A stretch of DNA of 64,000 bases. Origin: Branchinecta lynchi. Taxonomy: Eukaryota; Arthropoda; Branchiopoda; Anostraca; Branchinectidae. This document shows, one piece after another, positions 339 to 62,178 of this stretch. The stretch lies in assembly GCA_023053575.1 (NCBI GenBank), contig JAKZAP010000001.1, positions 15,454,849 to 15,518,848 of the forward strand. The letters are read 5' to 3'. The position numbers and the translations under genes were made by a program. The notes under the pieces were generated by a model that had not been told where the DNA came from, searched no databases, and worked only from the letters and a program-made list of their open reading frames with translations. The stretch's first letter is position 1. Each line of letters starts with the position of its first letter.

Positions 339-475
339 GTCATTTGTCCAGTTGATCGGGGATCTCAGCGAGCTAAAGGAGAAGAGCTACAGCGATGGCA
401 TCAGCCGAAGTACTAGTCAAAGCAGCGATATCGTTACGCCTTCTAGCCCCACTGCCTTCACTCTGGAAGCGATCG
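339..475 (+). CDS. PRKG: cGMP-dependent protein kinase, exon a (end of second cyclic-nucleotide-binding domain and linker)
   Basis: This is the first visible exon of a PRKG gene whose 5' part lies upstream of the window. It follows a TTATTACAG acceptor at 330-338, starts with the last base of a split codon, and ends at donor GTAAGG (476) in phase 1. It encodes SFVQLIGDLSELKEKSY, which resembles the last helix of the CNB-B domain of PKG (an FxxLIGxLDE-type motif in fly foraging and human PRKG1). A Ser/Thr-rich linker follows (SRSTSQSSDIVTPSSPTAF). The phase-1 end joins exactly to the next exon at 11890, giving the linker into the kinase N-lobe. The serine-rich linker is a plausible regulatory or phosphorylated segment, which is inference. 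Splicing straight to 11890 is supported by phase; an extra exon in the 11.4-kb intron cannot be excluded. Confidence 0.8.
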
Positions 476-1064
476 GTAAGGTCCAAATCTTTTTAAGAAG
501 GGCCTGTAATGTTTCAATGCGGTAGCGGTCGCCATGCTGTTCGCTTTAAAAATTAGTTTAAAGGACACTTCGTACTTATGACACTAATTCATTATACTTC
601 AATAGTATGAATGAATGGATTTATTGCACGAAACCATGGGGTCATGGCAACAAAACAAAAAGAAAACACAACAAACTACAAAAATCGCTCTCTATGGGAC
701 AGACCAACTCGGAGGAAGCTAGCCACCTATATTTGTACTTCCAATCTTTTCTAAATGTCCATCCGTTCTTATTAGCAAGATTCTTCACTTAAAAAGTGTA
801 TCCTATCTTCTGTATTGGTATTACGTTGATTTGTTACGATTCCCACGTTTTATTCTTTTAATGACGTATCAGGCCCGCGATCCTCGTTTCCAAAAATCTT
901 ATTGGTCAGCAGACCGGTTATGATATGATATTTTATTATTTATTAATAGAAAAAGACGTTAAGCCGAAGCTTCTCTCTCTACGTTGCTTAAAGCCTGAGC
1001 GCCATCGCATACAGAACAAATAGAAAACAAACAAACAACTCATGTAGTAAATCCTAGATCCTAT

Positions 1065-1301
1065 CTACAAAAACTCTTCTCTACGCTTCCAACCTATCCG
1101 CAAAAACCTTCTAAGCTGTCCAACCGCGAAGAAACTTTTCTCCTTAAACTTTTCCACCAACCAACCGAAAATTTGCGCCCCAAATATTTCAACTCTCAAA
1201 TCATTCAGCTCCACACATTCGCACATAAAATGAAAAAAAAAAAAGTCATGCACAAAACCACACAGTGGGCAGAAGTAAGGACCACAATTATCTCGGAACA
1301 T
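1065..1301 (-). pseudogene. Relic of a non-LTR retrotransposon ORF2 C-terminus (zinc-finger region)
   Basis: The minus-strand reading frame has CPLCGFVHD, then an HF pair, CEC and NDLR spaced as in the C-terminal cysteine/histidine segment after the reverse transcriptase of many LINEs (CPLC...HFLFECP...LR pattern). It then runs into a basic, hydrophobic tail. No RT core is found beside it, so it looks like a fragment. The assignment is based on one motif only. It lies in PRKG intron 1. Confidence 0.45.
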
Positions 1302-1441
1302 CTAGCGGAAACACTGTGTAGTGCGAGGTGTTCTTACAGGAAATGTTTCAATAGATCGAGATAGATTTTGTTTATTAGTTACATAGTGGTTTGTTATGAT
1401 TGTGTTTATGATGCCGATGTTTAGTTGCTGTCGATCTATTT

Positions 1442-1492
1442 TTTAAACTCGTCTTTTTGGCGGAATAAAAGCTTATTATTATTATTATTATA
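1442..1492 (+). repeat. Probable non-LTR retrotransposon 3' tail with (ATT)n
   Basis: An AATAAAA-type signal is followed immediately by (TTA/ATT)n, the usual look of a LINE or SINE 3' end. No matching body was recognised upstream. Confidence 0.4.
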
Positions 1493-58986: not shown

Positions 58987-59442
58987 TTAAAGTTTAACTG
59001 AAAAGACAACTTATTTTTGTGTCATTGAATTGAATACACTGAACTATTTAGATTATACAAAAGGATTTTTTATTTTCCACTATCTACTCTAGTTATGACG
59101 CTCAGTATATCTACAGTCGTCTCCGCAACGAAAATTCTACCATGTCGCGGTAAATTTTAATCTCAACACAAACGCGGCTTTTCAGAGAGCAGTGGTGAGA
59201 TTTGTGAAGATTGCTTAGTGCCTGAACAAAAAAAATCATAAATCTTTCTCGTAAGGCATACAACAAAAATATAAGCGCATCGAGGTACCACAAATCACGC
59301 AGAAATTATTTGAAAATCGGTTATTCGTTGAATAGCGGAACAACGAAGTAACGCATTTTCAGCGGGTCTTCAAGCCAACTTTAGTGAATAAATAATGGGT
59401 AACTAGAATGTCCTATCCCAGCCCTTTTCGGTTGTACTTTAA
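58987..59442. mobile_element. Family H TTAA-flanked element, copy H4, 456 bp
   Basis: TTAA at 58987-58990 and 59439-59442. The inner ends are AGTTTAACTGAAAAGACAAC and, from the right, AGTACAACCGAAAAGGGCTG. The interior matches H1 in GTAACGCATTTTCAGCGGGT and GGGTAACTAGAATGTCCTAT. Confidence 0.75.
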
Positions 59443-60123
59443 AGGGCCAGTCTTAGCTATATTACTATTTATTTTCCGGCCCTAATTATTCTATCCATTC
59501 TCATTTCACAGATTTCGGACTTCCTACGTCGTAATTGTATCCATCATAACGGCATTAAATTTGTTTTTGCAGTTGCCGTATTTGGCTCTTTTCGGTACAG
59601 ATTAGGCTCCCTCTCATTGCTTCCGAGGAGTCCATTGGTCAGAATTACCGTTTATGCATCCATGTTCTATCAAAACCAAGGAAATCGCGCGTGGCTGAGA
59701 ACAACCGGGACGGGTTTGTAATCTCTGCGAAGCCCTGCAGCGCTGCATGGTAGCGTCTGTTATGTATATTTCAAACAGAAACTGCATTTACTCGAATTTT
59801 GCTTTAATAGTACGGTCGTTTGTCCACGTGCTTCGTCAGCAGCCAATTAGAAAGCACCGCACTCCATATTTTTTTTTTTCATTTTAATTTTAATTTCTTA
59901 ATTTTAACTTTTCAATTTTTATAGATTTCGTGTTTTTTTAATTTTTTTTTTTTTTTCTCAGCAGATATACCCCTCCGTGCGGGACGAATAAATGACAAAT
60001 ATACCGGTTTTCTTGGCAAAGGCAGAGTTTGCTCGTTGCACTACGTTGAAACAAGGAACTTTTTGAGCGAAAGATAGTTTAGTACAAGAGCTTGGATATC
60101 AGGGTTTACGGATATCGAAAACA

Positions 60124-61381
60124 ACAAGACCAAAGGTGTCGATGGGATCCCAAAAATCTAATATTTGATTCAGACAATCGAGTCTTGTCTTCGCCAGATC
60201 CAGTCTTGGACAGGCTAATTATCAGAGAAAACCAAGTTCAGATATACCTCTATAAACCATATCTATTTTGACGATACTGACCGGGACTTCCTGCCGATTT
60301 CCGAGCGAACTACTAGCCCAGCAAACAAAAAAAATACAGAAACAAAACCAGCGTATCTCCTTATCCCTATAAAGAACATCTAATCAACTTTGAATAAAAG
60401 TTTGACTTAAAAAAAAATCCGGTTACAACCGGATTCCGGAAAAATTATATGTCCGGGTAAAAAAACATCGTCATAAACCGACTCAGCCTCCCTTCTTACC
60501 CCTTAATCTGTCATCTACTCGAACTTTTGCTTTTAACAAATTTTCCGGTTTTGGCCGGATTCCGGGCGAACTACTTGTCCGTCAAGAAAATGATTTTCAC
60601 CATCGTCTTCAGCATGTCTTCCAACCTCTAAATCGAACATCTAATCAACTTCAAATAAAACTTTCACTTTTAACAAACTTTCCGGTTTTGGCCGGATTCC
60701 GGGCGAACTACTCGTCCGATGACAAAATGATTTTCCTCATCGTGCTCAGCATGTCTTCTTACCCCATAATCGACTATCAAACTATCAACTCGAAATAAAA
60801 CTTCTAATTTTAACAAACTTTCCGGTTTCGGCCGGATTCCGGGCGTACTACTTATCCTTCGAGAAAATGGTTTTCACCATCGTCTTCAGCATGTCTTCCT
60901 ACCCCTAAATCGAACATCTAATCAACTACAAATAAAACTTTTACTTTTAACAAACTTTCCGGTTTTGGCCGGATTCCGGGCGAACTACTCGTCCGATGAC
61001 AAAATAGTTTTCACCATCGTGATCAGCATGTCTTCTTACCCCATAATCGACTATCACATTAGCTGTTTCAAAATATTTTGTTTGCCCCTTAATTTAAACC
61101 CCCTCCCCCACCCCTAAATGTAGGGCTACATAGCCCATCTACGAACTTGACTGGTCCGACGACCCAACGAATCCTCACACCAAGTTTCATCAAAATATCT
61201 CACTCCCTTCGAGAGTTATCGTGCTTACAGACGGACGGACAGACGGACGGACGGACGGACGGACGGACGGACGGACGGACGGACGGACGGACGGACGGAC
61301 GGACGGACGGACGGACGGACGGACAGACGGACAACTTTTGCGATGTCATAGGTATCCCTCCACTTACGTTTTGGGATCCCA
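60124..61381 (-). mobile_element. Family A element, copy A9, complete
   Basis: The minus-strand copy has GGGATCCC near 61374-61381, about 100 bp of (GGAC)n/(GTCC)n at 61231-61331, CATCAAAATATCTCACTCCC (the GATGAAAC-side block), six core units, and end ACAAGACCAAAGGTGTCGAT at 60124. It begins about 75 bp past the BMP3-like propeptide donor. The repetitive frames at 61147-61451 come from the microsatellite. Confidence 0.88.
61231..61331 (+). repeat. (GGAC)n microsatellite in A9
   Basis: About 25 nearly uninterrupted GGAC units with a few GACA variants at the edges. Confidence 0.95.
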
Positions 61382-61456
61382 AAAACGGAAAACGGTTTCA
61401 AGACCTTCAAACACTAAAAAGGGATCTAAAAAAATAATTCCTACCACTTGATTTAC

Positions 61457-62178
61457 GTCAAGCCAAGCCTGGGGCAACTTCCGTTCCTTCTTCTTGTCCT
61501 TCCTTAACTTCCAGCTTTTCTTGTGACCTTTTGGGTAGGGAATATACCTGCTCTTCTTAGAGTCACGTTTATGTCCAATTTTCCCCACTAACTCACTTTT
61601 CTTCTCAGCAACCAGGTCGAAAGAGTTTTCCGAAAAGGCTTCATTCATTTCCGGCTCCGACTGAACATCATCTATTTCATTATCATGAACTGAGCGGGCA
61701 GGCCTGCCTTTCTTCCCCCCTTTCATCTTCCCGTATGCAGGGTCGGAGTGAGGTACAAATTTTGTTACATTCATTGCGTTATCATTCGTATACAAAACCA
61801 GGAAGGGGGAGGGGTCAACTTTGATCAAAGATTTAATGGACGAAATTCCAAGACCTGCGTTCAAATTCTCTTCATTCAACTTGACACTTAAAAGGCGGGG
61901 CCATTCTTTTTCCATAACGGTTTTCACCGAACGGGGTATGTCCCTCGACATCCATCCTCGGGAACTTTCGGGAATTTCGAACTCCTCAATGTCAAGCGGA
62001 TCATTGGTAAGTTCCTGGACGGCCAGTGCAAATTTACCATTGTTGGTAAGTTTACTTGTAATGCCAAAAGGGGCGTGTGTACGACGTTTGAAAAAGTAGA
62101 TCTCGGCTGATACTATCTGTTCGGTGGAAGGTACTGAGGATATGTTGAATACGAACACCTGTTCGCCGAAGGATTCAC
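61457..62178 (-). CDS. BMP3: BMP3/GDF10-like ligand, propeptide exon
   Basis: The minus-strand acceptor TTTTCTTCACAG ends at 62179. The first two bases complete a split codon. The likeliest donor is GAC|GTAAAT at 61457/61456, phase 0, fitting the next exon; GTG|GTAGGA at 61445 is an alternative. It encodes ESFGEQVFVFNISSVPSTEQ, then IVSAEIYFFKRR, the typical TGF-beta propeptide start, and later DPSPFLVLYTNDNAM, like the PxxLVYAND segment of BMP propeptides. One minimal furin motif RPAR lies at 61694-61705. The later basic stretch (KKSR, KKKER) has no strict RxxR. An N-terminal exon with signal peptide must lie upstream. The reported open frame continues into element A9, which is not coding. 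Confidence 0.92.

What the first reader, a model, noticed from the sequence alone, without database searches (positions are those of the whole stretch)
339..62178. Convergent PRKG and BMP3/GDF10-like genes: a possible ancient bilaterian gene pair
The window shows a PRKG gene (+, stop at 39800) facing a BMP3/GDF10-like ligand gene (-, stop at 49688), 3' ends about 10 kb apart. From memory, human BMP3 and PRKG2 are neighbours at 4q21 and also convergent, and the paralogues GDF10 and PRKG1 share chromosome 10q11-q21. The same order and orientation in a probable protostome would mean the pair predates the bilaterian split and survived the vertebrate duplications. Shared regulatory DNA between the genes could be what holds them together, which is inference.
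Basis: partly seen in the sequence, partly recalled or inferred. Interest (0 to 1): 0.9.

Follow-up and report, generated by a model that had tools for sequence, protein, structure and literature searches.

The report
Ancient kinase and BMP3 gene pair
In what is likely a crustacean genome, a cGMP-activated kinase gene of the PRKG2 type and a gene for the growth-factor relative BMP3/GDF10 lie tail to tail about 10 kb apart, a neighbourhood also reported in a mammal and so likely inherited from the common ancestor of insects, snails and humans.

Summary
Seven PKG exons (+, 339-39800) face three BMP3/GDF10 exons (-, 62178-49688), stops 9,887 bp apart, phases fitting. Flanks from the same chromosome (C17) supply more PKG exons and BMP3's first exon. 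Trees set the kinase apart from PRKG1/foraging, on the PRKG2 side (100/100), and the ligand in BMP3/GDF10 (100/100). The closest kinase is Artemia's. Both genes share a contig in Artemia and Pomacea, not in Dreissena. A dog paper finds only these two genes in a 190-kb interval. The pair is likely an old bilaterian linkage.

PRKG1 and PRKG2 both exist in protostomes and deuterostomes, so GDF10-PRKG1 on human chromosome 10 is not the twin of BMP3-PRKG2. Here PRKG1 lies on the pair's own chromosome, about 11 Mb away, and BMP3 shares a contig with PRKG1 in Owenia, Pollicipes and Anabrus (not in Periplaneta or Scophthalmus). All three genes probably shared an ancestral chromosome, sorted unequally after the vertebrate duplications. 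Adjacency in other animals, and shared regulation, remain untested.

The parts
339..475 (+). PKG exon: end of second cGMP-binding domain and linker (further exons precede it outside the window)
   Evidence: splice sites and phase; upstream exons between about -67.7 and -12.0 kb in window coordinates
11890..12109 (+). PKG exon: kinase glycine-rich loop (LGIGGFGRVELV)
29879..30110 (+). PKG exon: catalytic loop (YRDLKPENLLLD)
33159..33322 (+). PKG exon: DFG and activation segment (WTFCGTPEYVAPE)
36646..36831 (+). PKG exon: C-lobe
37735..37801 (+). PKG exon: C-lobe end
39705..39800 (+). PKG last exon with stop (SGWDTDF*)
39801..49687 (.). gap of 9,887 bp between the two stops; 61% of it matches repeats elsewhere in the window
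   Evidence: no Pfam match in the five of six ORFs scanned
49688..49879 (-). BMP3/GDF10 last exon: second half of the mature cystine-knot domain, ends ESCACR*
58625..58807 (-). BMP3/GDF10 exon: first half of the mature domain; 183 bp, phase 0 at both ends
61445..62178 (-). BMP3/GDF10 exon: propeptide with an RPAR|S site (cleavage predicted by eye)
   Evidence: exon 1 lies outside the window at window coordinates 84002-83819

Best explanation
A PRKG2-type cGMP-dependent kinase gene and the BMP3/GDF10 gene stand tail to tail 9.9 kb apart in this genome, likely a crustacean's, and the pair is likely inherited from the last common ancestor of bilaterians. PRKG1/foraging lies on the same chromosome here, about 11 Mb away, so the ancestral chromosome probably carried BMP3/GDF10, PRKG2 and PRKG1 together. 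After the vertebrate genome duplications one copy would have kept BMP3 with PRKG2 and the other GDF10 with PRKG1, by unequal loss rather than as twin pairs. The genes encode a secreted BMP-type ligand (an antagonist in vertebrates, PMC3579780 passages) and a cGMP-activated kinase. My preferred reason for their staying together is untested: enhancers of BMP3 would lie in the large introns of PRKG2 or beyond it, so that breaks between the genes would be removed by selection.
For: Gene models and orientation. Full BMP3 with exon 1 in phase. Kinase class: the PRKG1 side separates at 100/100 in the longest alignment, with the window gene beside arthropod, mollusc and brachiopod genes and human PRKG2 on the other side; kinase-only trees agree on the PRKG1 group (100, 100/99); holding the PRKG2 side together is not rejected (p-AU 0.747 with Trichoplax, 0.13 without). 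BMP3/GDF10 group 100/99 and 100/100. One contig of 51,680,706 bp for both genes in Artemia and of 45,418,568 bp in Pomacea. PRKG1-type gene and BMP3 on one contig in Owenia, Pollicipes and Anabrus, and on C17 here (C17 is 32.0 of 575.7 Mb, 5.6%). Dog: a 190-kb interval with just PRKG2 and BMP3 (PMC3410846, passages). All 23 annotated BMP pathway components keep their ancestral linkage group in five bilaterians (PMC13121700, section 8; that bmp3 is one of the 23 is my inference from its annotation there).
Against: Dreissena: BMP3 on a contig of 87,507,468 bp, PRKG2-type on one of 211,287,878 bp. Periplaneta and Scophthalmus: PRKG1-type not with BMP3. A shared contig says nothing about adjacency, and no other genome's gene order could be read. 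In the free PKA-rooted kinase tree the PRKG1 group sits inside the PRKG2-type genes and Trichoplax outside all of them, so strict PRKG2 orthology is not settled. JNK, whose human copies lie in the same two regions (recalled), is on C21 here by my reading of locus L005, so no wide block is preserved. CFAP299, BMP3's human neighbour (recalled), gave no match, with a control that could not ring. 61% of the gap is repeats.
Confidence: 0.68

Rival explanations
1. Only the chromosome is ancient: BMP3, PRKG1 and PRKG2 belong to one ancestral linkage group, and the tail-to-tail neighbourhood in this animal and in mammals arose separately when genes were shuffled within the chromosome.
For: Linkage without known distance in Artemia, Pomacea, Owenia, Pollicipes and Anabrus. 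PRKG1 is about 11 Mb away here. Linkage-group conservation is usual for BMP genes (PMC13121700, section 8).
Against: Two genes becoming direct convergent neighbours twice among the many genes of one chromosome is improbable (inference). Dog has only these two genes in 190 kb.
Confidence: 0.22
2. Neutral persistence, a rival on the cause alone and compatible with an inherited pair: nothing holds the genes together, and no rearrangement happened to break them.
For: 61% of the gap is repeat DNA, and what lies beyond BMP3 differs from my recollection of human 4q21. Dreissena appears to have broken the linkage.
Against: Both genes are large here (about 107 kb and 34 kb) and full of repeats, so there was room for breaks, yet the order stands (inference).
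Confidence: 0.4
3. Chance: unrelated genes that happen to be neighbours here.
For: Any two neighbours look like a pair; no second invertebrate gene order was read. Chance sharing of a contig does occur: in Ornithodoros a BMP2/4-like gene shares one with a PKG.
Against: The class of both genes matches the mammalian neighbours, and they share contigs in Artemia and Pomacea.
Confidence: 0.08

Closest known systems
BMP3-PRKG2 neighbourhood of mammals (dog chromosome 32; human 4q21)
   Same: Same two gene classes side by side; in dog a 190-kb interval holds just these two genes (PMC3410846, passages). Convergent orientation in human is recalled.
   Different: Here the gap is 9.9 kb, what lies beyond BMP3 differs (human neighbours recalled), and the animal is likely a crustacean.
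Conservation of BMP genes on ancestral linkage groups (PMC13121700)
   Same: All 23 annotated BMP components keep their linkage group across five bilaterians (section 8).
   Different: That work follows chromosomes rather than neighbour order, and a term search of its main text found no PRKG.
Ancient microsyntenic gene pairs and genomic regulatory blocks (as a kind, recalled)
   Same: Two unrelated neighbours kept together over very long times.
   Different: No conserved non-coding element or contact has been shown for this pair.

Membership tests
BMP3/GDF10 ligands | Groups with BMP3 and GDF10 rather than other TGF-beta ligands | tested here: met
   100/99, 30 rows against 15 (bootstrap not fully settled); 100/100, 20 full-length rows against 7
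BMP3/GDF10 ligands | Seven-cysteine mature domain ending in CACR | tested here: met
   Read in the model and in the alignment to BMP3
BMP3/GDF10 ligands | Signal peptide, propeptide and basic cleavage site before the mature domain | tested here: inconclusive
   Propeptide matched (E 8.7e-7); hydrophobic N-terminus in exon 1 and RPAR|S site seen by eye; no predictor run
PRKG2 class of cGMP-dependent kinases | Branches apart from PRKG1/foraging | tested here: met
   100/100; PRKG1 group 100/99
PRKG2 class of cGMP-dependent kinases | One clade with vertebrate PRKG2 when rooted | tested here: inconclusive
   Free PKA-rooted tree nests PRKG1 inside the PRKG2-type genes; one clade not rejected, p-AU 0.747, or 0.13 without Trichoplax; the root is one distant PKA row
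PRKG2 class of cGMP-dependent kinases | N-terminal myristoylation site (named for PRKG2 in a passage of PMC4595086) | tested here: inconclusive
   In-frame MGNGAS in the likely first exon, but an upstream in-frame ATG exists and the true start is unknown
Conserved microsyntenic pair | Same neighbours and orientation in distant lineages | tested here: inconclusive
   Convergent here; dog neighbourhood from a paper; orientation in human recalled; elsewhere only shared contigs
Genomic regulatory block | Regulatory elements of one gene within or beyond the other | not tested
   No related genome could be aligned

The most novel reading that the evidence does not exclude
BMP3/GDF10 and PRKG2 form a bilaterian regulatory block whose BMP3 enhancers sit inside PRKG2. 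PRKG1 was the third gene of the same chromosome. The human BMP3-PRKG2 and GDF10-PRKG1 regions are the two mirror halves left by unequal loss after genome duplication.
Probability: 0.27. Interest if true: 0.72.

Novelty: new member of a known kind. Interest (0 to 1): 0.5.

Why it matters
A signalling ligand and a kinase kept as convergent neighbours from crustaceans to mammals would be one of the older gene pairs of animals, and a simple test of whether long-range enhancers hold genes together. It would suggest that the skull and growth phenotypes mapped to this interval in dogs and people (PMC3410846, PMC4359765, passages) may involve shared DNA rather than one gene. The protein searches also contradict a 2013 statement that BMP3 occurs only in deuterostomes (PMC3579780, abstract and passages).

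Tried and rejected
Rejected: that GDF10-PRKG1 is the duplicate of BMP3-PRKG2 (both PKG sides hold protostomes and deuterostomes). Rejected: that the ligand is BMP2/4, BMP5-8 or activin. Set aside: Ornithodoros, where a BMP2/4-like gene (P0054) shares a contig with a PKG (P0064); it is outside the BMP3 group, so not counted. Set aside as uninformative: Lingula, Potamilus, Amphibalanus and Danionella (short scaffolds, different for the two genes; the Potamilus ligand was in no tree). CFAP299 gave no match; its control genomes, prokaryotes as far as listed, gave none either. Searches of the own genome for RasGEF_N (PF00618) and TGF_beta (PF00019) were asked repeatedly and never answered.
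Full report
What is there. The window carries, on +, seven exons of a cGMP-dependent protein kinase ending in a stop at 39800 and, on -, three exons of a BMP3/GDF10-type ligand ending in a stop at 49688. Internal exon edges have AG/GT sites and the phases join. The gap between the stops is 9,887 bp. Five of the six stop-to-stop ORFs of 100 aa or more inside it were scanned and have no Pfam match, and 61% of its bases match repeats elsewhere in the window.

Beyond the window. 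The window lies at C17:15454849-15518848 of a genome of 575.7 Mb in 216 contigs. In the fetched flanks, tblastn finds further PKG exons for the cGMP-binding domains between about -48.0 and -12.0 kb in window coordinates. By eye there is a likely linker exon near -53.7 kb and a coiled-coil exon near -67.7 kb that holds an in-frame MGNGAS, a possible myristoylation start as in PRKG2 (predicted). BMP3 exon 1 lies at 84002-83819 (-) with a hydrophobic start, FMLDLYEKF and NTVRSF. It joins in phase and gives a 430-aa protein with propeptide and TGF-beta domains. So the PKG gene is about 107 kb long and the BMP3 gene about 34 kb.

What animal. The nearest PKG is from Artemia franciscana (82% over the whole query). 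For the ligand the best search hit is Liolophura, a mollusc (E 1.3e-52), and the Artemia protein, an isoform lacking one exon, ranks far lower (E 1.1e-21); the tree nevertheless pairs the window ligand with Artemia (98/94, on 44% of the columns). The host is therefore likely a branchiopod crustacean; no tool named the species.

Which kinase. In the kinase-only tree the window gene pairs with Artemia (100/100) inside an arthropod group (100/99), and PRKG1 plus foraging form their own group (100/99). Rooted on PKA, that free tree puts the PRKG1 group inside the PRKG2-type genes and Trichoplax outside all of them. Holding the whole PRKG2 side together gives a slightly better tree (p-AU 0.747); without Trichoplax it is worse but not rejected (0.13). 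With the cGMP-binding domains added, the two sides separate at 100/100; on the window's side lie arthropod 'isozyme 1' genes, molluscs, Lingula, echinoderms, amphioxus, Trichoplax and human PRKG2 (unrooted). Each side holds protostomes and deuterostomes, so the PRKG1/PRKG2 split predates bilaterians. A fly paper notes three fly PKGs and cites work that sees For as functionally PRKG2-like, while For lacks the myristoylation site (PMC4595086, passages).

Which ligand. The mature domain's best solved match is BMP3 (E 1.8e-36; next GDF5, 5.3e-25). Trees put it in BMP3/GDF10 with 100/99 (30 rows against 15) and 100/100 (20 full-length rows against 7). BMP3-type proteins of molluscs, annelids, nemerteans, Lingula, Limulus, a spider, crustaceans, a leafhopper, a cockroach, a termite and an orthopteran fall in that group, so the 2013 statement that BMP3 is confined to deuterostomes (PMC3579780, abstract and passages) no longer holds. 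Spiralian bmp3 is already in print (PMC13121700, passages).

Linkage elsewhere. No other animal's gene order could be read, but the protein search gives the longest contig of each protein cluster, and I take equal lengths as the same contig. By my reading of the listed rows, twelve species have a BMP3-like row and a PKG row, both with contig lengths. The lists were capped (120 rows), and PKG candidates were limited to about 640 aa. Four are scaffold-level and differ: Lingula, Potamilus, Amphibalanus and Danionella. Of the eight at chromosome scale, five share the contig. With the PRKG2-type gene it is 2 of 3: Artemia and Pomacea yes, Dreissena no. With the PRKG1-type gene it is 3 of 5: Owenia, Pollicipes and Anabrus yes, Periplaneta and Scophthalmus no; Scophthalmus is a weak test after the vertebrate duplications. 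Classes are, BMP3 membership of these eight.

A third gene on the chromosome. In the own genome, the foraging protein of Pollicipes maps in eleven matches to C17:4215779-4341780 at 63-92% identity, while the window gene's exons match it at 52-77% and the best-scoring locus outside C17 at 52%. One exon was compared separately: median 88% identity (73-95) in 26 alignments with PRKG1-side rows against 75% (44-85) in 31 with PRKG2-side rows. PRKG1 is thus on the same chromosome as the pair, about 11 Mb away; by length alone the chance is 5.6%.

Reading. The simplest account is one ancestral chromosome with BMP3/GDF10, PRKG2 and PRKG1. The first two were neighbours, and after the vertebrate duplications one copy retained BMP3 with PRKG2 and the other GDF10 with PRKG1. 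The human positions are recalled, as the finding recalled them. For dog, adjacency is in print: a 190-kb interval with just PRKG2 and BMP3 (PMC3410846, passages). A human 4q21 deletion paper lists PRKG2, RASGEF1B, HNRNPD and others as deleted, and BMP3 too (PMC4359765, passages).

Against it. Dreissena; no adjacency test elsewhere; JNK on C21 (L005; identity of the gene and its human places recalled), so no wide block survives; CFAP299 not found, with a control that could not ring. Beyond BMP3 lie an ORF that resembles HAUS3 (recall; no Pfam match) and MELK-like kinase exons (recall), not my recollection of the human neighbours.

Why kept together. Shared regulation is only a proposal. A related functional link is that the foraging kinase affects BMP signalling in the fly wing (PMC4595086, title, start of abstract and passages). 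That concerns PRKG1-type, not this gene.

In print or not. Full-text searches for BMP3 with PRKG2, PRKG, GDF10/PRKG1, microsynteny and convergent terms listed no paper whose title or abstract start concerns this pair in invertebrates. Two of the lists were capped (25 of 33 papers, 10 of 193), supplements were not searched, and subscription journals are mostly not held.

Noticed in passing
window 28305-28655 (+), in the PKG intron before the exon at 29879: A mitochondrial ND5-like piece (ND5 by recall) in the nuclear gene: PF00361, E 1.4e-21, read with the invertebrate mitochondrial code; open for 117 aa.
   Followed up: partly
window 4071-5278, 5924-6929, 26534-27686, 43586-44947, 55949-57136, 60118-61252: A dispersed repeat; these six copies hold 136-137-bp tandem units, and two lie beside GTCC/GACG microsatellites (43481-43611, 61230-61332). 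The last copy ends about 190 bp from the BMP3 propeptide exon.
   Followed up: partly
window 21300-21728 (+): Decayed reverse-transcriptase fragment (RVT_1, E 0.0017, below cut-off).
   Followed up: no
C17 flank, window coordinates about 102.8-113.7 kb (-) and 141.0-152.2 kb (+): Two Polinton/Maverick-like elements (long polymerase-like, packaging-ATPase-like and integrase-like frames, by recall) beyond BMP3; observed only.
   Followed up: no
window 58625-58807 and P0044: The 183-bp BMP3 exon is phase 0 at both ends, and the Artemia isoform X2 protein lacks the matching stretch, so skipping would give a ligand without the first half of its knot.
   Followed up: partly
C17, window coordinate -67416: In-frame MGNGAS in the likely first PKG exon resembles the MGNG start of human PRKG2 (recalled).
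   Followed up: partly
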